From an uncultured Gallionellaceae bacterium (GTDB lineage Bacteria > Pseudomonadota > Gammaproteobacteria > Burkholderiales > Gallionellaceae): 50,273 nt of DNA. This document shows positions 1,473-46,606 of the stretch, in pieces. Within the stretch, counting starts at the first letter, position 1. Each line of letters begins with the position of its first letter. A program made the position numbers and the translations under genes. The notes beneath the pieces were generated by a model. The model was not told where the DNA came from. It saw nothing but the letters and a program-made list of their open reading frames with translations, and searched no databases. The stretch lies in NCBI GenBank assembly GCA_903913145.1, contig CAIWKC010000104.1:1-50273 (forward strand). Direction: 5' to 3'.

Positions 1473-1502
1473 CAAGGGAGACTTCGGTCTCCCTTGTTTT
1501 TT
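1473..1502 (+). terminator. Rho-independent terminator after the cyc2-like gene
   Basis: caagggagac-ttcg-gtctcccttg followed by a T-rich run. Confidence 0.85.
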
Positions 1503-1539
1503 GTGCGAGCAAAACCGCCAACAGGTAAAATCGCACACT

Positions 1540-4500
1540 ATGAATTCTGTACTATCTCTTTCCGCACAACGCCGTTTGGCACGGGTGCAACAACTCACCG
1601 AAATCGAATATCCCGCAGACTTGCCCGTCGTGGCGCGACGCGAGGAATTAGCGCTGGCCATTGAAAAGCATCAAGTCATCATCGTGTGCGGAGAAACAGG
1701 TTCGGGCAAGACCACGCAATTGCCAAAGATATGCTTGAGTCTGGGCAGAGGCGTGCGGGGGGTGATTGGACATACTCAACCCAGGCGCGTGGCGGCAAGG
1801 TCGGTAGCGGCGCGAATTGCGCATGAATTGAAATCGGAGCTGGGCGGGCTGGTGGGTTACAAAGTTCGCTTCAACGATAAGGTGTCATCTGATACCTGTA
1901 TCAAACTCATGACCGACGGTATTCTGCTGGCAGAAATACACCATGACCCGCTGCTGAGAAATTACGACACGATTATTATCGACGAAGCGCATGAGCGTTC
2001 GCTGAATATTGATTTTTTGTTGGGATACTTTAAGCAGGTTTTGCCAAGACGGCCGGATTTGAAATTGATTATTACGTCGGCGACGCTGGATGCGGAAAGG
2101 TTTGCGAAGCATTTTGGGGGGGTGGGGGTTGTTTCAGAGATTACCCCCTCCCCAACCCCTCCCCCGTTGGGAGAGGGACTAAACCCCACATCGCTTCTCG
2201 GTTTTAGCTCCCTCTCCCCCCGGGGGAGGGCTGGGGAGGGGGTGTCTAGTAAAGTAAAATCTCACCCAACAGTTCCCGAACAGTTATTAACCCACGCCCG
2301 CGAACTGCGCAAAAACGCGACTGATGTCGAAAATTTACTCTGGTATTTATTGCGCAGGAACCAAATTCTTGGTTTTGGTTTTCGTCGCCAGCATCCGCTG
2401 GGTTCGTACATTCTCGATTTCTATTGCCATGAGGCAAAATTGGTCATTGAGCTGGATGGCGGGCAGCATGCTGAAGATGAGCAACTTAAACATGATCAAA
2501 AGCGGAGTGCCTGGTTGCAGGAACAGGGCATTACTGTATTGCGCTTTTGGAATAATGAGGTGTTGACGAATACTGAGGGGGTGTTGGAGACGATTTATGG
2601 GTGGTTGAGTTTGCGGGGTGTAAATACCCCCTCCCCAGCCCTCCCCCGGGGGGAGAGGGAGTTAAAACCGGGAAGTGACGCGGTGTTTAGTCTCTCCCCA
2701 GCACTTCCTCTGGGGGAATTAAAGCCGGGAAGTGACGTGGGGTTTAGTCCCTCTCCCCTCGGGGGAGGGGTTGGGGAGGGGGTGGTGGCAGATAGTCATG
2801 CTGACTCAGTAATCTCGTCTCTCGCCCCCATCATCCAAGTCTCCGGCCGAACCTATCCTGTTGAAATCCGCTATCGGCCACCGCAACAAAATGAAGAAGG
2901 CGACTTGCAGGATATTCCGCAGGCGATATGCAGTGCGCTGGACGAACTGAGTATTGGCGGCTTGCGCGGAGATGTGCTGGTGTTTCTACCCGGCGAGCGT
3001 GAAATACGCGATACCGCCGAGGCACTGCGCAAACATCAGCACAGGGGCATTGAAATCCTGCCGTTGTTTTCGCGCTTATCAATTGCCGAGCAGGATCGGG
3101 TCTTCAAACCCGCCTCAGGGGTGCGTCGCGTGGTGCTGGCGACCAATGTGGCGGAAACATCGCTTACCGTGCCTAACATCGGCTACGTGATCGACAGCGG
3201 ACTGGCGCGCATCAATCGTTACAGTGTGCGGCAGAAGGTGGAGCAACTGCGTATTGAGAGCATCGCGCGGGCCGCTGCCAACCAGCGTGCCGGTCGTTGC
3301 GGACGGGTGATGAGCGGGGTGTGTGTCCGCTTGTACGAAGAGGCGGATTTTTTGCAGCGGCCTGAATTTGCCGATGCCGAGATTTTCCGCGTGTCGTTGG
3401 CCACGGTGATCTTGCGTATGAGTGCGCTGGGTTTGGGTGAGGTAAGTGAGTTTCCGTTCATTGAGCCACCTGGTTCGCGTGCGATTGCGGATGGGTATCA
3501 ATTGTTGATTGAGTTGGGGGCGATTTCGGAGGGCTTACCCCCTCCCCAACCCTCCCCCGGAGGGAGAGGGAGTTTGCAGTCTTTTCCCGCCGTGAGAGCA
3601 AGAGGGGAGGGAGAAAGTGCCCCACGCAGCGTAACTCGCCCCCTCACTCCCCTTGGTCATGAACTCGCCAAACTACCCCTCGATCCAAAGGTGGCGCGGC
3701 TCTTATTGGCTGGGCGGCAGTACCATTGTTTAGATGAGATTCTGATTATCGCCAGTGCGTTGTCTTTGCAAGACCCGCGTGATCGTCCGGCCGAACGACG
3801 CGAAGCGGCTGATGCGGCGCATCATCGATTTAACGATGAGCGTTCAGACTTTCTGGCCTACATTAAATTGTGGGCGTGGTTTCAGGATGCGGTGAAACAT
3901 AAGAAGACGAACAAGTTGTGGGCGAGTGAATGTCGGGAGAAGTTTTTGTCACCGGTGAGGTTGCGGGAGTGGCATGAGTTGCATCAGCAGTTACATGCTC
4001 AGGTGGCGGAGATGGGGATGTTGGGTGGGGGCGCTAGGGTGTCCCGGCACCCCCTCCCCAACCCCTCCCCCGGAGGGAGAGGGACTAAAATCGCGGGCCT
4101 TAACGCTAACTCAGCGGGTTCTAATACGAGCTCCCTCTCCCAACGGGGGAGGGTTGGGGAGGGGGTAGTTGAGCCAATAGCGCAAGCACCCCAACCCGCC
4201 ACCTACGAACAAATCCACAAAGCTCTGCTCACCGGCCTTCTCGGCAACATCGGTTGCAAAGGCATTGATCGCGAACCTTATTACCTTGGCGCGCGCGAGA
4301 TCAAATTCTACATTGCCTCAAATTCGGTATTGGCAAAAAAGGGGACGAAGTGGGTAGTCGCAGCGGAAATTGTGGAAACGACGAAGTTGTTTGCACGTTG
4401 CGTGGCACGCATTGAACCTGAGTGGCTGGAAGAGGTAGGCGCGCATTTGATCAAGCGCCATTACTTCGATGCGCATTGGGAGAAAAAAGCGGCGCAGGTG

Positions 4501-6315
4501 GCGGCGTGGGAGCGCAGCACTTTGTACGGCTTGGTGATCAATCCCAAGAAGCGCGTGCATTACGGACCGATGAACGTGGTGGAGTCGCGCGAAATTTTTA
4601 TCCGCGAAGCGCTGGTGACCGGCGAATTTAATACGCAAGCGCCTTTTTTTGCACATAACCAGAAATTGATCGCCGACATCGAAGCGCTGGAACATAAAGC
4701 GCGGCGACCGGATGTGCTGGTGGATGATGAATTAATTTATGCGTTTTACGACGAGCGCATTCCGGCAGGCATTCACAACGGCGCAGCATTTGAACATTGG
4801 CGCAAGGAAGCGGAGCGAGAAACGCCGCGTTTACTTTATCTGAAAAAAGACGATTTGATGCGGCACGAGGCGGCGGGAATTACCACCGCTCAATTTCCGC
4901 CACAAATGCAAATGAGCAATGTGAGCTATGCACTTGGCTATAACTTTGCCCCGGGTAAAAATGATGACGGCGTCACGCTCACTGTGCCGCAAGCCTTGTT
5001 GAATCAGGTGTCGGCGATGCGCTGCGAATATCTGGTGCCGGGATTGCTGGCAGAAAAAGTCGCCCAGCTGGTGAAATCATTGCCGCAAAAAATACGCCGG
5101 AATTGTGTGCCGGTACCGGAATTTGCGGCGGCATTCAGCGTGGCAGTGTTGCCATCAGACACGCCGTTGTTGCAAGCGCTGGCGCGCTACATTCGCGAAC
5201 AAAAGCAACTCGATGTGCCGCTGGATGCTTTCCGAATGGAACAATTGCCCACGCATTTGCTGATGAATTTTCGGGTGATGGATGAACATGGCCGGCAATT
5301 AGGGATGTCGAGGAATTTTGGGCAGTTGAGGGGCGAATTTGGGGTGAGGACTTCTGTGGTGACAAACCCCCTCCCCAACCCCTCCCCCGTAGGGAGAGGG
5401 ACTAAAACCGTGGGCCTCAACGCTAACTCCCTCTCTCCTTGGGGGAGGGTTGGGGAGGGGGTAGCTTTGCAACGCTACACCGACTGGTCCTTCAACGATT
5501 TCAAACCCACCTCCGAAGAACTTCGCGCCGGCCAGACCATTACTGTGTTTAACGCATTGATAGACGCCGGCGATGCCGTAACCCTGCAAAGTTTCGACAC
5601 CCGCGAAGAAGCCCAAACGTCACACCGCTTGGGATTACGCCGCTTATTCATGTTGGCGCTGAAGGAACAAGTAAAATATCTGGAAAAAAATCTGCCGGGG
5701 TTGCAGGCGATGGCGATGAAATTTTTGCCATTTGGATCACAGCAAGACTTGCAGCGGCAAATATTGTCGGTGACCTTTGACCGCTGTAGTTTGAATGAGC
5801 CCTGGCCAGAAAACGCTAAGGAATTTGATGTTCGTTGCAAAGAGGCGAAAGCGCGTTTGAATCTGGTGGCGCAGGAAATTGCGCGGCTGGTGGGTGAGGT
5901 ATTAACTGAATATCAGGTTTTGCAAAAAGCGCTGCCCGGCCACAAGGCGCACCCTCAGGTGCAGCAGGATATTCGCAATCAATGCGAATGGTTGCTGGGC
6001 AAGGAATGGATCGCACGGACGCCTTACGAGAGAATGCAACATATGCCGCGCTATTTAAAGGCGATTAATATTCGACTGGAAAAGTTGCGCGCAAACCCGG
6101 CACGCGATGCGCAACTTTTGGCGCAAATGAGTCCGTTGCAACAGCAATGGCAGCGCAAGTTGTCTGCCTTGCAGGGTGACATTGATGTGCGTGCACAAGA
6201 TTTTGGCTGGATGATGCAGGAGTTGCGGGTTTCTTTGTTTGCGCAGGAACTAAAAACCCCGGTGATCGTGTCGGTAAAACGGCTGGAGAAGATTCTGTCC
6301 GGACTAAACAGTTAA
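1540..6315 (+). CDS. hrpA: ATP-dependent RNA helicase HrpA, carrying several in-frame insertions
   Basis: GETGSGKTTQLPK, DEAHERS, SATLD, VSGRTYPVEIRY, NVAETSLTVPNI, QRAGRCGR, and a C-terminal DUF3418-like region. The ORF begins at 1501 (TTG); the ATG at 1540 (MNSVLSLSAQRRLARVQ) is the likelier start. At ~1590 aa it is longer than E. coli HrpA (~1300 aa). Confidence 0.93.
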   Translation: MNSVLSLSAQRRLARVQQLTEIEYPADLPVVARREELALAIEKHQVIIVCGETGSGKTTQLPKICLSLGRGVRGVIGHTQPRRVAARSVAARIAHELKSELGGLVGYKVRFNDKVSSDTCIKLMTDGILLAEIHHDPLLRNYDTIIIDEAHERSLNIDFLLGYFKQVLPRRPDLKLIITSATLDAERFAKHFGGVGVVSEITPSPTPPPLGEGLNPTSLLGFSSLSPRGRAGEGVSSKVKSHPTVPEQLLTHARELRKNATDVENLLWYLLRRNQILGFGFRRQHPLGSYILDFYCHEAKLVIELDGGQHAEDEQLKHDQKRSAWLQEQGITVLRFWNNEVLTNTEGVLETIYGWLSLRGVNTPSPALPRGERELKPGSDAVFSLSPALPLGELKPGSDVGFSPSPLGGGVGEGVVADSHADSVISSLAPIIQVSGRTYPVEIRYRPPQQNEEGDLQDIPQAICSALDELSIGGLRGDVLVFLPGEREIRDTAEALRKHQHRGIEILPLFSRLSIAEQDRVFKPASGVRRVVLATNVAETSLTVPNIGYVIDSGLARINRYSVRQKVEQLRIESIARAAANQRAGRCGRVMSGVCVRLYEEADFLQRPEFADAEIFRVSLATVILRMSALGLGEVSEFPFIEPPGSRAIADGYQLLIELGAISEGLPPPQPSPGGRGSLQSFPAVRARGEGESAPRSVTRPLTPLGHELAKLPLDPKVARLLLAGRQYHCLDEILIIASALSLQDPRDRPAERREAADAAHHRFNDERSDFLAYIKLWAWFQDAVKHKKTNKLWASECREKFLSPVRLREWHELHQQLHAQVAEMGMLGGGARVSRHPLPNPSPGGRGTKIAGLNANSAGSNTSSLSQRGRVGEGVVEPIAQAPQPATYEQIHKALLTGLLGNIGCKGIDREPYYLGAREIKFYIASNSVLAKKGTKWVVAAEIVETTKLFARCVARIEPEWLEEVGAHLIKRHYFDAHWEKKAAQVAAWERSTLYGLVINPKKRVHYGPMNVVESREIFIREALVTGEFNTQAPFFAHNQKLIADIEALEHKARRPDVLVDDELIYAFYDERIPAGIHNGAAFEHWRKEAERETPRLLYLKKDDLMRHEAAGITTAQFPPQMQMSNVSYALGYNFAPGKNDDGVTLTVPQALLNQVSAMRCEYLVPGLLAEKVAQLVKSLPQKIRRNCVPVPEFAAAFSVAVLPSDTPLLQALARYIREQKQLDVPLDAFRMEQLPTHLLMNFRVMDEHGRQLGMSRNFGQLRGEFGVRTSVVTNPLPNPSPVGRGTKTVGLNANSLSPWGRVGEGVALQRYTDWSFNDFKPTSEELRAGQTITVFNALIDAGDAVTLQSFDTREEAQTSHRLGLRRLFMLALKEQVKYLEKNLPGLQAMAMKFLPFGSQQDLQRQILSVTFDRCSLNEPWPENAKEFDVRCKEAKARLNLVAQEIARLVGEVLTEYQVLQKALPGHKAHPQVQQDIRNQCEWLLGKEWIARTPYERMQHMPRYLKAINIRLEKLRANPARDAQLLAQMSPLQQQWQRKLSALQGDIDVRAQDFGWMMQELRVSLFAQELKTPVIVSVKRLEKILSGLNS
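2144..2242. repeat. Palindromic element A (in-frame in hrpA)
   Basis: Left arm ccccctccccaacccctcccccgttgggagaggga. Right arm tccctctccccccgggggagggctggggaggggg is nearly its reverse complement. Confidence 0.9.
2242..2620 (+). CDS. DUF559 / VSR-like endonuclease domain embedded in frame inside hrpA
   Basis: TVPEQLLTHARELRKNATDVENLLWYLLRRNQILGFGFRRQHPLGSYILDFYCHEAKLVIELDGGQHAEDEQLKHDQKRSAWLQEQGITVLRFWNNEVLTNTEGVLETI is a characteristic DUF559 sequence with D...ExD catalytic spacing. An in-frame GTG lies at 2242. There is no stop before hrpA resumes. Confidence 0.9.
2627..2782. repeat. Palindromic element B (in-frame in hrpA), with an internally duplicated core
   Basis: Left arm ccccctccccagccctcccccggggggagaggga, right arm ccctctcccctcgggggaggggttggggaggggg. 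The core ttaaa(a/g)ccgggaagtgacg(c/t)ggkgtttagtc occurs twice, 57 bp apart. Confidence 0.88.
3538..3616. repeat. Palindromic element C (in-frame in hrpA), right arm degenerate
   Basis: ccccctccccaaccctcccccggagggagagggag matches the left arm. The right side is only vaguely similar (agaggggagggaga). Confidence 0.75.
4050..4165. repeat. Palindromic element D (in-frame in hrpA)
   Basis: ccccctccccaacccctcccccggagggagagggactaaaatcgcgggccttaacgctaact ... tccctctcccaacgggggagggttggggaggggg. Confidence 0.9.
5367..5461. repeat. Palindromic element E (in-frame in hrpA)
   Basis: ccccctccccaacccctcccccgtagggagagggactaaaaccgtgggcctcaacgctaact ... ccctctctccttgggggagggttggggaggggg. The core is homologous to element D. 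Confidence 0.9.
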
Positions 6316-12969: not shown

Positions 12970-13046
12970 GGTGATATAGCTCAGGTGGTTAGAGCGCAGC
13001 ACTCATAACGCTGAGGTCGGTGGTTCAAATCCACCTATCACCACCA
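12970..13046 (+). tRNA. tRNA-Met (CAT anticodon), CCA encoded
   Basis: GGTGATA tagctcaggtggttagagc gcagcactCATaacgctg aggtc ggtggttcaaatccacc TATCACC A CCA; full cloverleaf. Confidence 0.93.
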
Positions 13047-13158: not shown

Positions 13159-13203
13159 TGTTGGTATATCTGTTGGTGCATGGTAATCTGCTGTTGGTAC
13201 ATA
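13159..13203 (+). promoter_or_regulatory. Candidate integrase arm-type sites, left
   Basis: tgttggtatatctgttggtgcatg plus another ttggtacat; the paired motif recurs at 20097-20120. Confidence 0.6.
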
Positions 13204-13231
13204 AAATTTTGTGTATTCAATCCGCGGAGGA

Positions 13232-14455
13232 ATGATGGCACTAACTGATTTGCAGGTTAAGAACGCAAAGCCCAAAGACAGGCAATATAAATTGTCTGAT
13301 GGCGGTGGGTTGTTCATGTTGGTACATCCAAACAGTGGTCGCTATTGGCGGTTGGCATATCGTTTCGATGGCAAACAAAAAACCCTTGCACTTGGCGTTT
13401 ATCCAGACGTGAGCCTTGCCGATGCGCGAGAACGGCGCGACCAAGCACGTAAGCTACTCTCAAACAACAACGACCCAAGTTTGGTTAAGCAGGAACAAAA
13501 GGCTGCAATCGTGGCGCTGGCAGAAAATAGTTTTGAAATAATCGCGCGTGAATGGTTTTCAAAATATTCTCCAAATTGGAAAGAGAACCATTCCAGCAAG
13601 ATTCTTGCTCGATTGGAAAATGATGTTTTTCCGTGGATTGGCAAGCAACCTGTTAGTGAGATTGCGGCACCTGCATTATTGTCAGTAGTTCGCCGGATTG
13701 AGGACCGCGGCGCATTGGAAACCGCACATCGTGTGCTGGCTATATGCGGGCAGATATTTCGCTATGCTGTGGCAACTGTAAGGGCTGAGCGTGACCCTAC
13801 CGGCGATCTGAGAGGGGCTTTGCCACCTGTGAAACGCGGCAATCACTTCGCTGCCATAACAGAACCTAAAAAAGTGGGGGAACTACTGCGCGACATTTAT
13901 GGATATCAAGGCTCATTTGTTGTGCAGTGTGCCTTCAAGCTGTCGCCAATGTTATTTGTGCGCCCCGGCGAACTTCGCAAAATGGAATGGACAGAAGTTG
14001 ACTTCGATAAAACTGAATGGACTATCCCTGCTGAAAAGATGAAGATGGGGGTTACCCATATTGTGCCGCTTTGCAAACAGGCAATTGAAATACTTCATGA
14101 AATCCATCCGCTGACAGGGCGTAGCAAGTATGTCTTTCACGGCGAACGCGACCATGACAGGCCAATGAGTGATAACGCCGTACGTTCAGCATTGAGGCGC
14201 ATGGGATGGGCTAATGATGAAATGACACCGCATGGATTCAGAGCAATGGCATCAACTATTCTGGATAACATGGGTTATAAACAGGAATGGCTTGAAAGGC
14301 AGCTTGCCCATGAAGAGCCGAATAAGATTAAAGCGGCATACAAACGCGAAGCATGGCGTATGTACTTACCCGAGCGTGCTACTATGATGCAGGCATGGGC
14401 AGACTATCTGGACAAACTCAAGAAAGGCGCGGAAGTAATACCGCTACGCGCTTGA
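13232..14455 (+). CDS. Tyrosine recombinase/integrase, P4 type with DUF4102 arm-binding domain
   Basis: LTDLQVKNAKPKDRQYKLSDGGGLFMLV; catalytic RPGELRKMEW, TPHGFRAMASTIL, QLAHEEPNKIKAAYKR. RBS gcggagga before ATG 13232/13235. Confidence 0.95.
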   Translation: MMALTDLQVKNAKPKDRQYKLSDGGGLFMLVHPNSGRYWRLAYRFDGKQKTLALGVYPDVSLADARERRDQARKLLSNNNDPSLVKQEQKAAIVALAENSFEIIAREWFSKYSPNWKENHSSKILARLENDVFPWIGKQPVSEIAAPALLSVVRRIEDRGALETAHRVLAICGQIFRYAVATVRAERDPTGDLRGALPPVKRGNHFAAITEPKKVGELLRDIYGYQGSFVVQCAFKLSPMLFVRPGELRKMEWTEVDFDKTEWTIPAEKMKMGVTHIVPLCKQAIEILHEIHPLTGRSKYVFHGERDHDRPMSDNAVRSALRRMGWANDEMTPHGFRAMASTILDNMGYKQEWLERQLAHEEPNKIKAAYKREAWRMYLPERATMMQAWADYLDKLKKGAEVIPLRA

Positions 14456-14840: not shown

Positions 14841-14851
14841 CCCCCCCCCCC
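14841..14851 (+). repeat. C11 homopolymer tract
   Basis: atcg-ccccccccccc-gactt. Confidence 0.95.
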
Positions 14852-14855
14852 GACT

Positions 14856-15122
14856 TTACCTTATTTGTCGCCATGCCATAGATCGCTCTAAAGACCTTGC
14901 AGCAGCCGCTTCCCATGCTTCCAGAGCTTTCACCTCTGCAGCCTTAACCGCATTGGCAGCTACTTCCGCTGCATGCAATAGAAGTTCGGCAGCCACTCCA
15001 GCGGCTTTGAGACTGACGGCTTCTCTTGCCTTTTCTACTGCGTGGAATGCGGCAAGCCGAACAGCTTCAGCACGCAATAATGCTTCTTCTGCTGCCGCGA
15101 GTGTTTCATGTACTTCTTTCAT
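14856..15122 (-). CDS. Ala/Glu-rich coiled-coil small protein, translationally coupled to the GGDEF-EAL gene
   Basis: ATG overlaps the end of the upstream gene (15119-15122); 88 aa helical sequence. Confidence 0.55.
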   Translation of the reverse strand: MKEVHETLAAAEEALLRAEAVRLAAFHAVEKAREAVSLKAAGVAAELLLHAAEVAANAVKAAEVKALEAWEAAAARSLERSMAWRQIR

Positions 15123-17344
15123 CTTTGCTTCCTATCAGTGTCATTCATCATTAGGGCTTCAAATTCTTCAATTGCTACAGGCTTACTGAACAAATATCCT
15201 TGGCATAAAGGACAGTCGTTCTGTTCCAGAAAGGCACGTTGACTCTCCGTTTCCACACCCTCGGCAATCACTTCGATCTCAAGGCTTTTGGCCATTCCTA
15301 TTATTGTTTGGATGACTACGGCATCTGATTTCCTTACACCGATGTTTCTCACAAATGCCTGGTCAATCTTGATTTGACTCAGCGGCAATTGTGTCAGGTA
15401 AGCAAGTGATGAAAATCCAGTACCAAAATCATCCATTGAAAAGCGTACCCCTATTTCCTTGAGTGCATTCATCTTGATGATAGTGTCGTCCACATTCTCC
15501 AACACCAGACTTTCCGTCAGTTCGAGTTTGAGCTTGCTTGGGTCAATAACGGTTGCATTCAAAACGGCTAGCACTTGTTCCACAAAGTTACGTTGGCGGA
15601 ACTGGCGGGAACTGACATTAACGGCAAGTTGCAAGTCGCAGGTAAGCGGGTCACCTTCCCATATCTTGAGCTGGTTACAAGCAGTCTCCAATACCCATTG
15701 CCCTATCACCAGAATCAGGCTTGACTCCTCGGCATAAGGAATAAAGTCCAATGGAGTAACCAGTCCACGCACCGGATGTTCCCAGCGGATCAACGCTTCT
15801 GCCCCGACAGGTTGTCCGGTGTGTGTAGCTTGTAGTTGATAATACAATTTGAATTGGCACTTTTCCAGAGCGATGCGTAAATCAACATTCAATGCGGCAC
15901 GGTCTGTAATGCTGGTCTGCATCAGTTGATCAAAGAAGCGTACGGTGTTCTTGCCTTCTTTCTTGGCTTGATACATGGCAATGTCAGCCTGTTTCAACAG
16001 TTCTTCCATGACTTGTTCTTTGCCATTGAACATGGTCACACCGATGCTGGGTGTGCTGTGGTATTCACCTGTTGCAAGCAAGTAGGGTTTGTTAAGTACG
16101 TCCAGAATCTTGGCGGTGACAGCTTCCGTCAGTGTTGCGGCTTCTATGGGAGACTCACTCAGATTTTCCAACATCACCACAAACTCGTCACCTCCCAGAC
16201 GGGCAACGGTGTCGTCTTGACGCACAATGGCCACTAGGCGATCCGCTACCTTTTTCAACAATATATCACCGATGGCATGGCCAAGGGTGTCGTTAATGGT
16301 CTTGAAATTGTCCAGATCTATGAACAGTAACCCGCCAACTTTTCCGCTGCGTCCACTGGAAGCCAATGCTTGCAGCAGCCTATCCATTAGAAGCTGACGG
16401 TTAGGTAATCCCGTGAGTTGGTCAAAGAAAGCCAGTCGCTTGATTTCTTCTGCCGCTGCTGAACTCAGGGTGATGTCGGTCAGCGTGGCAACGTAATTCG
16501 TGAGGTTGCCTTTGCGGCAGTTTACGGAGGAGATTGTGAGATGTTCCGGGTAGATTTCGCCGTTCTTGCGCTTGTTCCAGATTTCTCCCTCCCAATATCC
16601 CGTTTGATGGATTCCTCTCCACATTTGCTCATAAAACTGGTTAGTCTGTCGCCCTGATCGAAGTATGCTCGGACTCTTGCCTTTAACTTCTTCTTCTGTA
16701 TAGCCTGTAATCTTAGTAAAGGAAGCGTTCACTCTAAGAATCGCGGCATTTGCATCGGTGATCATCATCCCTTCTTGGGAATCGAAAGCGATAGCTGCAA
16801 TCCGTAATTCAGTCTCAGCCTTCTTGAATTTACTAATATCGACCAGCGTAAGGCGCACCAAAGGCGCTTCGTTCTCAATTTGTCGGTACAAGCAATGGAG
16901 ATGTGTGTCAATTGCCGATCCGTCACCACGGACTAGGCTCATCTCGAAGTGCTGTTCTTTCAACGTACTATCCTGCTTAATGGAGAGAAACAGACGGTGC
17001 CAACGATCTACATCCGATTTGGCAACAAAATGCGAAAATCTTTTATGAACGAGATTTGCTCGATCCACACCCAGCAACGACGACGCTTTAAGATTGATTT
17101 CAGAGATCAACCCATCTTCAGAAATCGTGACTTTACCAACAGGGGAAAACTCGTACATATCAATATAACGGTCACGAGAAATTTCGAGTGCTTCCTGTGA
17201 CTGGCGAAGTGCTTCATTCTGCATTTCCAGTTCGATCTGATGCACTTTCAGTTCATGCAGTATTTCTTCCGATGAGTGAACAGCCAATAATCGAGGGTTT
17301 CGAGAGAGTTGTTGCTCGGCGCTGGAACGTAGGGAATTAGACAT
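15119..17344 (-). CDS. PAS-PAS-GGDEF-EAL c-di-GMP signalling protein
   Basis: ARLGGDEFVVML and AEALIRWEHP intact; PAS motifs near the N-terminus. Confidence 0.95.
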   Translation of the reverse strand: MSNSLRSSAEQQLSRNPRLLAVHSSEEILHELKVHQIELEMQNEALRQSQEALEISRDRYIDMYEFSPVGKVTISEDGLISEINLKASSLLGVDRANLVHKRFSHFVAKSDVDRWHRLFLSIKQDSTLKEQHFEMSLVRGDGSAIDTHLHCLYRQIENEAPLVRLTLVDISKFKKAETELRIAAIAFDSQEGMMITDANAAILRVNASFTKITGYTEEEVKGKSPSILRSGRQTNQFYEQMWRGIHQTGYWEGEIWNKRKNGEIYPEHLTISSVNCRKGNLTNYVATLTDITLSSAAAEEIKRLAFFDQLTGLPNRQLLMDRLLQALASSGRSGKVGGLLFIDLDNFKTINDTLGHAIGDILLKKVADRLVAIVRQDDTVARLGGDEFVVMLENLSESPIEAATLTEAVTAKILDVLNKPYLLATGEYHSTPSIGVTMFNGKEQVMEELLKQADIAMYQAKKEGKNTVRFFDQLMQTSITDRAALNVDLRIALEKCQFKLYYQLQATHTGQPVGAEALIRWEHPVRGLVTPLDFIPYAEESSLILVIGQWVLETACNQLKIWEGDPLTCDLQLAVNVSSRQFRQRNFVEQVLAVLNATVIDPSKLKLELTESLVLENVDDTIIKMNALKEIGVRFSMDDFGTGFSSLAYLTQLPLSQIKIDQAFVRNIGVRKSDAVVIQTIIGMAKSLEIEVIAEGVETESQRAFLEQNDCPLCQGYLFSKPVAIEEFEALMMNDTDRKQR

Positions 17345-17481: not shown

Positions 17482-17493
17482 GGGGGGGGGGGG
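17482..17493 (+). repeat. G12 homopolymer tract
   Basis: tacgc-gggggggggggg-cgg. Confidence 0.95.
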
Positions 17494-17753
17494 CGGAGTC
17501 AATGCTTATATTCGAGAGCCTGCTGGAGGTCGGGGTTGACCTGTTGCTTGTGGTACATTCCTGCGGAAAATTTATCAATTTCATTGCAGCATAGCTGCTA
17601 CTGACTGATGACCGTAATTGGCCGAACTTACGCTCTGCACCTTCTTATACATCAATGACCGCAATACTGTATAAGCAGCCAGTGACATTTTCGGGCTTTT
17701 AGTCACTATCTAAATATAAATTACGTTAATCACTTGAGGCTTATTTGACCAAA

Positions 17754-18398
17754 ATGTATCTAGACAGCAAAGATTACCAAACAGTTTGGCAACTGGCTCA
17801 CAATTGGGTAGGTGCTGATTCTCTAATTAGCGATCAAAATCAGCTATCGGGTGAGTTGAAACAGTCCATTCATCGACTCCTGTCCGCATCAATCAATCAT
17901 GCTATTCCATCAAGGACGAGAAGGTTTAAGCTTTTTATAGATGATTCATTTTTTTCGATGTTGCTTGATTTTCGTCATACTTTGAGAATTAGTAAATGCC
18001 TACGTAAGGACGAATTCGACAAGTCTTATCTGGACTCAATTTATTTGAAGCGTAGTGATGTTTTGTGCTGGTGTCAGAACGAATTCTTATTAGCACCTCC
18101 GATTTGGCAAATTGAGTATTTAGATGCCCCACAATTAGATCAACCTATTGACGACTCGGATGACGACAAAGACAACTGGTACGACAATATTTCCGATCGT
18201 CGCAAACAGCGCGTTGCTTGTTTGGAGATTGCAAAACAGCTTTGGAAAGAAAATCCGGAGCTTTCCTATAAGGAAGCGCACTCGCATCCAGCAATGATCC
18301 GCTATGGTTACGGTAAGAGTTTTTCCTTTGACACGTTTAAGAAATGGGCGCGTCCCTATGCTTCTGAGTTAGCAAAACAAGGAGGTAAAAAGCTTTAA
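17754..18398 (+). CDS. Hypothetical protein carried by the integrative element
   Basis: ORF of ~214 aa from ATG 17754; no confident family. Confidence 0.65.
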   Translation: MYLDSKDYQTVWQLAHNWVGADSLISDQNQLSGELKQSIHRLLSASINHAIPSRTRRFKLFIDDSFFSMLLDFRHTLRISKCLRKDEFDKSYLDSIYLKRSDVLCWCQNEFLLAPPIWQIEYLDAPQLDQPIDDSDDDKDNWYDNISDRRKQRVACLEIAKQLWKENPELSYKEAHSHPAMIRYGYGKSFSFDTFKKWARPYASELAKQGGKKL

Positions 18399-18529: not shown

Positions 18530-19816
18530 ATGGATACAAATGCAGTTAATCAAGCAGCCGCAACCGAGACAGCCTCCTACCGATGCGGCGAAAGCCGCAC
18601 GGTGGGAGGTGTCGAAGGCGAGGGGGCAGGAGGTACGCCGCTTACTAACAGAGTACCTTTAAAATACAACGCCCATATTTCTATGCTTTTGCGTTTTGGA
18701 ATAGACAGCCTTTATCTTTCATATCCCGGCGTGTTGTCCGAAGATTGGGATTTGAAACTTTCCAGATTAAAAGTGCTGGCACAGATGGAAGATGAAGTAA
18801 GTCAATCTATCGCTCAGGTGACAATTTGCGAGCATCTCTTTGAAGTGCGCGACAAAGGTGCGGGTCGATTTTCATTTGTGCTTGTAGACAATGCCTACCG
18901 CATTCAAGTTAGCAACGCTCGCTCAAAATCTTTGCCACTAGCCTACGTGCAGATTTCCAGTGAGTACCTGACTCATGCCGGAATAGAAAAAGCCGAGGAA
19001 GGTTTGCGCTATATCGTGAACACTCTGGGCATGGTGAATGAACCTGCTAACGTAAGCCGTGTGGATTTGTATGCTGATTTTTGCACCGATTGTGCAATGG
19101 ATGCATTTGACCCATTACGTGATTGGGTTACACGTGTAGAAACAATGACTTTGCATTACAGCAGCGGACAGTTTTCAGGTTGGAGCTTTGGATCGGGTGG
19201 GGATATTGTTGCTCGCCTTTATGATAAAACTCTTGAAGTCGATAAGAAGTCGCACAAGTTCTACCTGCATGAGTTGTGGAAGGCCGCTGGATGGGATGGA
19301 GTGCATCCAGTATGGCGAATGGAGTTTGAGGCTAAACGCGCCGCACTGGTGGCTCTGCAAATGCCAAAGCTCTCGGACTTGCTGCCGAATCTATCCTCAC
19401 TCTGGCGTTATCTCACTGAAAATTGGTTGCGGCTAACTGTGCCGACTGATTCGGACATTAATCGCGCTCGTTGGAGCAATCATCCACTTTGGGATTTTAT
19501 CGGCGCTGCATTTGATGATGAAACCGAACATGCTAAATTACAAAGGTTTAACCCCGCACGTTTACCAGAAGATGAGCGATTGTTCGTGCATGGCTTGGGT
19601 GGACTTACTTCGTTTATGGCAAGTCGTGGGATCGAGGACATTGGCGAAGGGATTGGAGAATATATACATCAAGCCAAGGCATATCACGTAGTTCGTTCCG
19701 GTTTTAAACATGACGGAATGGAAAAATATATCGGGCGCAAGGTGAAAGCAAAGAATCGTCGTTACAACACAGTTCTTAATGCTCAGCAATTACAACAAGC
19801 ATCAATTGATTCTTGA
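18530..19816 (+). CDS. Replication initiation factor-like protein (Rep_trans family)
   Basis: LRFGIDSLYLSYPGVL...YVQISSEYLTH...VSRVDLYADFCTD...YDKTLEV...WRMEFEAKRAAL fits the Rep_trans (PF02486-type) pattern. Confidence 0.75.
   Translation: MDTNAVNQAAATETASYRCGESRTVGGVEGEGAGGTPLTNRVPLKYNAHISMLLRFGIDSLYLSYPGVLSEDWDLKLSRLKVLAQMEDEVSQSIAQVTICEHLFEVRDKGAGRFSFVLVDNAYRIQVSNARSKSLPLAYVQISSEYLTHAGIEKAEEGLRYIVNTLGMVNEPANVSRVDLYADFCTDCAMDAFDPLRDWVTRVETMTLHYSSGQFSGWSFGSGGDIVARLYDKTLEVDKKSHKFYLHELWKAAGWDGVHPVWRMEFEAKRAALVALQMPKLSDLLPNLSSLWRYLTENWLRLTVPTDSDINRARWSNHPLWDFIGAAFDDETEHAKLQRFNPARLPEDERLFVHGLGGLTSFMASRGIEDIGEGIGEYIHQAKAYHVVRSGFKHDGMEKYIGRKVKAKNRRYNTVLNAQQLQQASIDS
18573..18609 (+). other. Strong hairpin with GAAA loop in the 5' part of the rep gene; candidate replication origin
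   Basis: cctcctaccgatgcggc-gaaa-gccgcacggtgggagg; near-perfect stem. Confidence 0.6.
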
Positions 19817-19845
19817 TAGTAACTCCGAACAGCAAATATATTAGG

Positions 19846-20085
19846 ATGAAAATTATGCAATCTACTTTACAGCAATTCACAACCAACAATACTCAACAAC
19901 AAAATGTTGACTGGCTTATTCCGCGCAAGACCGTAGAGAAACTTTCTGGTTTAAGTAGAGCTACAATTTATCGTTTAATTAAATCAGGGAAATTTCCACG
20001 CCCAATGTTAATTGGATCAGGCTCGGTACGATGGCGACAATCTGAAGTGATTGCGTGGCAGCATTCACTTAGTCCGAGCATTTAG
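19846..20085 (+). CDS. AlpA-family transcriptional regulator / excisionase-like protein
   Basis: WLIPRKTVEKLSGLSRATIYRLIKSGKFPRPMLIGSGSVRWRQSEVIAW. Confidence 0.9.
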   Translation: MKIMQSTLQQFTTNNTQQQNVDWLIPRKTVEKLSGLSRATIYRLIKSGKFPRPMLIGSGSVRWRQSEVIAWQHSLSPSI

Positions 20086-20096
20086 CGGGTTACAAA

Positions 20097-20120
20097 TGTT
20101 GGTATATCTGTTGGTACATG
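20097..20120 (+). promoter_or_regulatory. Candidate integrase arm-type sites, right
   Basis: tgttggtatatctgttggtacatg, near-identical to 13159-13182. Confidence 0.6.
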
Positions 20121-20186
20121 AAAAACATTAAAATCATAGAGTCATTGCTGGCGTGGTATGCCAGCGATGATTCAATAGTACCTATC

Positions 20187-20217
20187 CCAAGACCCTGTTT
20201 CAAACAATCTCAAAACA
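20187..20217 (+). repeat. att site, right
   Basis: Perfect 31 bp match to 13044-13074. Confidence 0.9.
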
Positions 20218-46550: not shown

Positions 46551-46574
46551 GTTTTTAAGCAAAAAATGGTTAAA

Positions 46575-46606
46575 CAAAAGGGGAGCCTCGGCTCCCCTTT
46601 TGTTGT
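46575..46606 (+). terminator. Rho-independent terminator after rplS
   Basis: caaaaggggagcc-tc-ggctccccttttg. Confidence 0.88.

What the first reader, a model, noticed from the sequence alone, without database searches (positions are those of the whole stretch)
18573..18609. GAAA-loop hairpin in the rep gene: candidate rolling-circle origin
cctcctaccgatgcggc-GAAA-gccgcacggtgggagg lies within the first 30 codons of a Rep_trans-like gene. In pT181-type plasmids the double-strand origin is a hairpin inside the rep coding sequence. The conserved Rep region starts only later (LLRFGIDSLYLSYPG), so this N-terminal coding stretch may be constrained as DNA rather than protein. It implies the excised element may replicate as a circle.
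Basis: partly seen in the sequence, partly recalled or inferred. Interest (0 to 1): 0.6.

Follow-up and report, generated by a model that had tools for sequence, protein, structure and literature searches.

The report
Two-hairpin replication origin inside rep
The DNA hairpin flagged at the start of a replication gene is real and conserved, but it is probably the helper half of a two-hairpin origin: the place where the copying enzyme cuts is most likely a second, smaller hairpin just downstream, which is kept in every relative checked.

Summary
The hairpin at 18573-18609 is real (full stem 18568-18613; z -4.8 against shuffles). It lies in codons 13-28 of a Rep gene of a 7.1-kb integrative element (tRNA-Met, 31-bp direct repeats, integrase, AlpA-type Xis). 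Pfam and NCBIfam do not recognise this Rep, but its predicted fold matches the solved Rep_trans initiators (RepSTK1, RepDE) and their catalytic residues are conserved.

Across 36 loci a hairpin (HP-A) usually recurs just upstream of the same spot. It is kept as structure, not sequence, and its loop (GAAA here) is not conserved, so it is a poor nick-site candidate.

It is intact in 36/36 loci, with compensatory changes that force coordinated amino-acid swaps. It carries the Rep_trans/MOBT nick motif CT'AA (GT'AA in many relatives). It recurs in a free 1.7-kb Mesotoga plasmid and inside rep of filamentous-phage-like contigs. Across 158 family genomes the motif was found only at rep 5' ends. Three elements form a mosaic whose exchange point falls at HP-B.

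Verdict: an in-gene rolling-circle origin, nick site shifted to HP-B; HP-A probably accessory. No nicking or circular DNA has been shown.

The parts
18568..18613 (+). HP-A, the finding's hairpin (core 18573-18609, GAAA loop 18590-18593); accessory hairpin of the origin
   Evidence: DNA fold z -4.81; structure kept without sequence in relatives
18631..18658 (+). HP-B, predicted nick hairpin AGGTAC-GCCGCTTACTAACAGA-GTACCT; predicted cut CT'AA between 18646 and 18647
   Evidence: 36/36 loci with intact stem; covariation; only at rep 5' ends in 158 genomes
18530..19816 (+). rep, Rep_trans-fold initiator, 428 aa; predicted catalytic Tyr231
   Evidence: invariant catalytic residues; AF2 pLDDT 83 and Foldseek to 4cij/4cwc/4cwe
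19813..20085 (+). AlpA-type excisionase/regulator, 90 aa
   Evidence: PF05930 E 5.6e-14
17745..18398 (+). 217-aa ORF of unknown function; part of the exchangeable module upstream of the nick site
   Evidence: no family hit; shared with G103 upstream of HP-B
13211..14455 (+). tyrosine integrase
   Evidence: PF00589/PF13356/PF22022
13044..13074 (.). left 31-bp direct repeat (attL core), overlapping the CCA end of tRNA-Met 12970-13046
20187..20217 (.). right 31-bp direct repeat (attR core)
15119..17344 (-). cargo gene: PAS-GGDEF-EAL (cyclic-di-GMP) protein, 741 aa
   Evidence: Pfam

Best explanation
The first ~43 codons of rep (18530-18660) double as the double-strand origin of an integrative element. 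After Int/AlpA-mediated excision (inferred), Rep, a tyrosine transesterase of Rep_trans fold, would cut the coding strand in the loop of HP-B at CT'AA (18646|18647), stay bound to the 5' end and start rolling-circle replication, possibly also transfer. The finding's hairpin, HP-A, whose loop lies about 41 nt 5' of HP-B, is a conserved but sequence-hypervariable accessory hairpin. It most likely helps expose the nick hairpin, or is recognised by shape, and is not the nick site. Shown by sequence: both hairpins and their covariation, the catalytic residues, and the exchange junction at HP-B. Inferred: nicking, excision, and replication as a circle.
For: HP-B: intact stem in 36/36 loci; covariation score 0.434 against 0.142 shuffled, 0/500; coordinated amino-acid swaps T/V, A/A, S/E, P/G, V/T at one stem pair and T/R against S/T, C/T at the loop pair; all 23 genome hits at rep 5' ends; CT'AA in a hairpin loop is the reported Rep_trans/MOBT nick site (PMC9371924) and pT181 plasmids carry the dso inside rep (PMC5703833). 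Same hairpin before the same Asp codon in a free 1724-bp plasmid, inside rep of Zot-bearing viral contigs and inside a genuine PF02486 gene of the same genome. Rep: invariant D59, R177/D179/D183, R229/Y231/K233/E236, R263/E265 with RepDE spacing (PMC4797284); Foldseek E 5.8e-10 to Rep_trans structures. HP-A: mean z -3.46, 75% of loci below -2 against 3.6% of control windows; covariation 0/500; median 41-nt spacing. Exchange junction at HP-B.
Against: No biochemical or coverage evidence. Profile libraries do not call this Rep a Rep_trans protein. Many relatives have GT'AA, not CT'AA. Relatives share ancestry, so shuffle tests overstate independence. HP-A is weak or displaced in a few loci (L005, L019, L028, L034, L042, L043). 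No empty attB with both flanks was found.
Confidence: 0.8

Rival explanations
1. One reading: the GAAA hairpin (HP-A) is the double-strand origin and Rep nicks in or at it.
For: HP-A is the most stable hairpin of the region and is conserved as structure.
Against: Its loop varies freely (GAAA, GCGA, GCA, ACC, TGT and others) and holds no CT'AA. G103 and G100 have 99% identical Rep-coding DNA over the kilobase after HP-B but unrelated HP-A. HP-B fits the known nick site far better.
Confidence: 0.06
2. HP-A is not part of the double-strand origin but a lagging-strand origin or termination/priming hairpin that works on the displaced single strand.
For: Conserved structure without conserved sequence; it lies on the 3'-OH side of the predicted nick, so it is copied last (inference).
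Against: The near-fixed ~41-nt spacing from HP-B suggests coupling to the nick site. Known sso types usually carry conserved sequence (own knowledge).
Confidence: 0.2
3. The hairpins act in the rep mRNA (translation or stability control of Rep), not in DNA.
For: Both lie in the transcribed 5' end of rep; DNA and RNA folding cannot be told apart from sequence alone.
Against: Wobble pairs are almost absent at the varying pairs of HP-B; the loop carries the DNA nick motif; no Rfam family matches (one sub-threshold U6 hit nearby on the other strand); the same hairpin occurs elsewhere in rep, between motifs I and III, in viral contigs.
Confidence: 0.06
4. HP-B is used for conjugative mobilisation only (an oriT for a MOBT-like relaxase), not for vegetative replication.
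For: MOBT relaxases share fold and nick motif (PMC9371924, PMC6499999).
Against: The closest autonomous relative is a 1.7-kb plasmid with only one other listed gene; other relatives are in phage-like contigs. Tn916 and ICEBs1 relaxases also start replication (PMC9371924).
Confidence: 0.12

Closest known systems
pT181-family plasmids (RepC/RepD, Rep_trans, PF02486)
   Same: Fold and catalytic residues of Rep (PMC4797284); origin inside the rep coding region (PMC5703833); nick motif in a hairpin loop plus a second inverted repeat that differs between elements.
   Different: The second inverted repeat is 5' of the nick hairpin here, 3' (ICRIII) in pT181; Rep core is the same in G103 and G100 although HP-A differs; element is integrated, with int and xis; below Pfam thresholds.
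MOBT relaxases and their oriT (ICEBs1 NicK, Tn916 Orf20, ICESt3 RelSt3)
   Same: CT'AA in the loop of a G/C-rich hairpin (PMC9371924); catalytic motif residues; integrative elements; dual replication/transfer role known for NicK and Orf20.
   Different: No T4SS or coupling gene in this 7-kb element; bind site IR2 of ICESt3 is 68 bp downstream, whereas HP-A is upstream; oriT of ICESt3 is intergenic.
Mesotoga prima plasmid pTHEBA.01 (1724 bp)
   Same: Rep homologue (about 26-28% identity, all catalytic residues) with HP-B type hairpin before the same Asp codon and a hairpin further upstream in rep.
   Different: Free plasmid, no integrase; loop 12 nt, TAGTAATA; Thermotogota host; its rep is annotated as hypothetical.
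Inovirus (filamentous phage) Rep_trans-type initiators
   Same: Rep homologues (28-32%); two contigs carry a GAGTAACAC hairpin inside rep; BFVD fold matches to Inoviridae Reps.
   Different: There the hairpin sits between motifs I and III, not at the N-terminus; virion genes (Zot type) are present, none in the window element.

Membership tests
Rep_trans (PF02486) | profile match above the curated cut-off | tested here: not met
   No hit even at E 10 for the window Rep; 1 of 27 relatives at E 0.016
Rep_trans (PF02486) | catalytic residues of motifs N', I, III, IV (DDE plus Tyr) with RepDE spacing | tested here: met
   D59; R177/D179/D183; R229/Y231/K233/E236; R263/E265 invariant in 27 sequences against PMC4797284
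Rep_trans (PF02486) | motif II, T/SxY/ExG | tested here: not met
   Only the Gly is kept (GWSFG in the window; motif from PMC5714925)
Rep_trans (PF02486) | Rep_trans catalytic fold | tested here: met
   AF2 pLDDT 83.4; the six PDB hits below E 0.001 are 4cij, 4cwc, 4cwe
Rep_trans (PF02486) | site-specific nicking by the Tyr at CT'AA | not testable with these tools
   Sequence CT'AA present in the HP-B loop; needs biochemistry
pT181-type double-strand origin | origin within the rep coding sequence with nick motif in a hairpin loop | tested here: met
   HP-B in codons 34-43
pT181-type double-strand origin | bind-site inverted repeat directly 3' of the nick hairpin (ICRIII) | tested here: not met
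   The conserved second hairpin is 5' of HP-B; no conserved 3' repeat was noticed in the fetched sequences
MOBT mobilisable element | coupling protein/T4SS or demonstrated mobilisation | tested here: inconclusive
   No such gene among the element's ORFs scanned; mobilisation in trans cannot be tested

The most novel reading that the evidence does not exclude
The in-gene nick site is also a natural module-exchange point: Rep-catalysed strand transfer between nick hairpins of different elements swaps the whole upstream module (217-aa ORF, rep control region, rep N-terminus, HP-A) against unrelated ones, while a sequence-hypervariable hairpin recognised only by shape (HP-A) serves as a universal origin part.
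Probability: 0.3. Interest if true: 0.72.

Novelty: new variant of a known kind. Interest (0 to 1): 0.56.

Why it matters
It defines a Rep_trans-fold initiator family that Pfam and NCBIfam miss, spread over proteobacterial integrative elements, a Thermotogota mini-plasmid and phage-like contigs. It gives the family a precise, testable nick site within the start of the gene, offers a diagnostic motif for finding such elements, and preserves a natural record of recombination at a presumed rolling-circle origin.

Tried and rejected
AF2 with only close relatives gave a useless model (pLDDT 35); adding viral relatives and trimming the N-terminus fixed it. Viral-contig searches with the window Rep or its close relatives found nothing; nor did the phage collection. 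HP-A as a dispersed host repeat: rejected, unique in the genome. HP-A as a sequence-specific site of the Rep core: disfavoured by G103/G100. Circularity of short contigs L003, L005, L043, L063: no terminal overlap. Empty attB with both flanks in 31 relatives: not found, mainly the tRNA region matches. Flanking direct repeats in L002, L004, L068 by exact 14-mers: none. Papers on replication of the Mesotoga plasmid: none in the library.

Full report
Observation. The hairpin is exactly as written at 18573-18609, with a longer stem (18568-18613) closed by GACA/TGTC. Folded as DNA it beats all 200 shuffles (z -4.81). Its 120-nt neighbourhood also folds better than 100 of 100 protein-preserving synonymous shuffles, so the codon choice, not only the peptide, makes the structure.

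Setting. The gene is 18530-19816 (428 aa). It is followed by an AlpA-type Xis (19813-20085) and preceded by an unknown 217-aa ORF (17745-18398). The element runs from 13044 to about 20217 between 31-bp perfect direct repeats. The left repeat overlaps the CCA end of tRNA-Met, a tyrosine integrase lies beside it, and the cargo is a PAS-GGDEF-EAL gene. In the circular form the order would be rep-alpA-att-int. That matches relatives in which rep is followed by a small ORF and an integrase-like ORF, often next to a tRNA.

The protein. Pfam and NCBIfam give nothing even at permissive E-values, and only one of 27 relatives touches PF02486, at E 0.016. Yet D59, R177/D179/D183, R229/Y231/K233/E236 and R263/E265 are invariant in an alignment that includes a 24%-identical plasmid protein. 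They have the spacing of the RepDE residues R140/D142/D146, R189/Y191/K193/E196 and R212/E214, with D59 in the place of D46 (PMC4797284). A first structure prediction failed. A second, with viral relatives in the alignment, reached pLDDT 83. Its only PDB matches below E 0.001 are the Rep_trans initiators 4cij, 4cwc and 4cwe, and its best BFVD matches include Inoviridae Rep proteins.

Two hairpins, not one. Lining up the 5' ends of 36 loci, window included, shows that the peptide before residue ~34 is hardly alignable while two nucleic-acid structures persist. HP-B (window 18631-18658) has a perfect stem of 5-9 bp in all 36, 42-53 nt before the codon of Asp59, with a 16-nt loop (12 nt in Mesotoga) containing [C/G]TAA or [C/G]TAT. 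On 30 distinct sequences 97.5% of cells pair, there are 36 double changes, and the covariation score is 0.434 against 0.142 shuffled, 0 of 500 reaching it; sliding the partner destroys it. One stem pair takes A-T, G-C, T-A and C-G forms. One loop pair flips between C-G and G-C around TAACA. These changes alter both encoded amino acids together (T/V, A/A, S/E, P/G, V/T; T/R against S/T and C/T), which protein selection does not easily explain. In 158 whole genomes of the family all 23 hits of the HP-B pattern coincide with rep 5' ends; the reversed control pattern gave 10 hits.

What HP-B is. MOBT relaxases, and the related Rep_trans initiators, cut CT'AA in the loop of a G/C-rich hairpin (PMC9371924), and in pT181 plasmids the origin lies inside rep (PMC5703833). 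HP-B has that motif (CT'AA in the window, GT'AA with a compensating C in most relatives) and that place. It recurs in the 1724-bp circular Mesotoga plasmid (GCACCCG-ATCATAGTAATA-CGGGTGC, just before the same Asp codon). It recurs inside rep of two phage-like contigs, between motifs I and III (Zot gene). It also occurs near codon 40 of a genuine PF02486 gene elsewhere in this genome (TCCCCCC-TTGGTAATAC-GGGGGGA). This is why the nick is placed at 18646|18647.

The 120 nt upstream of HP-B fold better than shuffles: mean z -3.46, 75% of loci below -2, against 3.6% of 305 control windows further down the same genes (Mann-Whitney p 7e-19; related loci are not independent). Synonymous shuffles agree (mean z -3.2). 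Eleven alignable copies show compensatory changes (0.274 against 0.132, 0/500). Its apical loop lies a median 41 nt (IQR 39-45.5) before HP-B. Its sequence and loop are free to vary, even where the flanking DNA is about 78% identical (window against G103), so it is unlikely to be the cut site. There are exceptions: in L005, L019, L028 and L034 the strongest hairpin is 85-95 nt away, and L042 and L043 gave only weak ones at the usual place in this scan. A role in extruding or positioning HP-B, or recognition by shape, fits best; a lagging-strand origin or termination hairpin is a live alternative.

A natural exchange experiment. Window and G103 share 76% DNA identity over 942 alignment columns, from the start of the 217-aa ORF to just past HP-B, and about 50% beyond it. 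G103 and G100 are unrelated upstream but 99% identical over the next kilobase, starting 16 nt before HP-B (93.5% over 2.7 kb). The three together place an exchange point at or beside HP-B. This is what Rep-catalysed joining of heterologous nick sites would leave, and relaxase-catalysed recombination at shared nick sequences is known (PMC5714925). Ordinary homologous recombination through ~30 conserved bases cannot be excluded.

Verdict. The nick site, however, should be moved about 55 bp downstream to HP-B, and the GAAA hairpin is probably the helper. Nothing here shows nicking, excision or a replicating circle; those steps are inference from homology and position. My confidence: HP-B as nick site about 0.85; HP-A as an origin part of some kind about 0.8; vegetative replication rather than transfer only, about 0.7.

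Noticed in passing
14841-14851 and 17482-17493: An 11-nt poly-C and a 12-nt poly-G tract lie in inverted orientation on either side of the PAS-GGDEF-EAL cargo gene (15119-17344); they may mark the cargo's borders or be hypermutable tracts.
   Followed up: no
15119-17344: The element's cargo is a cyclic-di-GMP turnover protein (PAS-GGDEF-EAL), so the element may alter host signalling.
   Followed up: no
G000:C193 (L110), outside the window: The same genome has a genuine PF02486 Rep gene with a TCCCCCC-TTGGTAATAC-GGGGGGA hairpin near codon 40 of its own coding sequence.
   Followed up: partly
L107 about 595-625 and L108 about 775-805: Viral contigs (Zot gene confirmed in L108) carry GAGTAACAC hairpins inside rep, between motifs I and III, a different place in the gene.
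   Followed up: partly
L038 (Mesotoga prima pTHEBA.01): The plasmid's 446-aa 'hypothetical protein' is a Rep of this family with a matching nick hairpin.
   Followed up: partly
13159-13182, 13191-13206, 20097-20123: TGTTGGTAyAT-type direct repeats near both element ends look like integrase arm sites.
   Followed up: no
2145-2242 and 4051-4165: Two related 34-nt inverted repeats (CCCCTCCCCAACCCCTCCCCC type) lie inside the 1604-aa ORF 1501-6315.
   Followed up: no
46573-46604: A perfect 15-bp inverted repeat with a 2-nt loop, possibly a bidirectional terminator.
   Followed up: no
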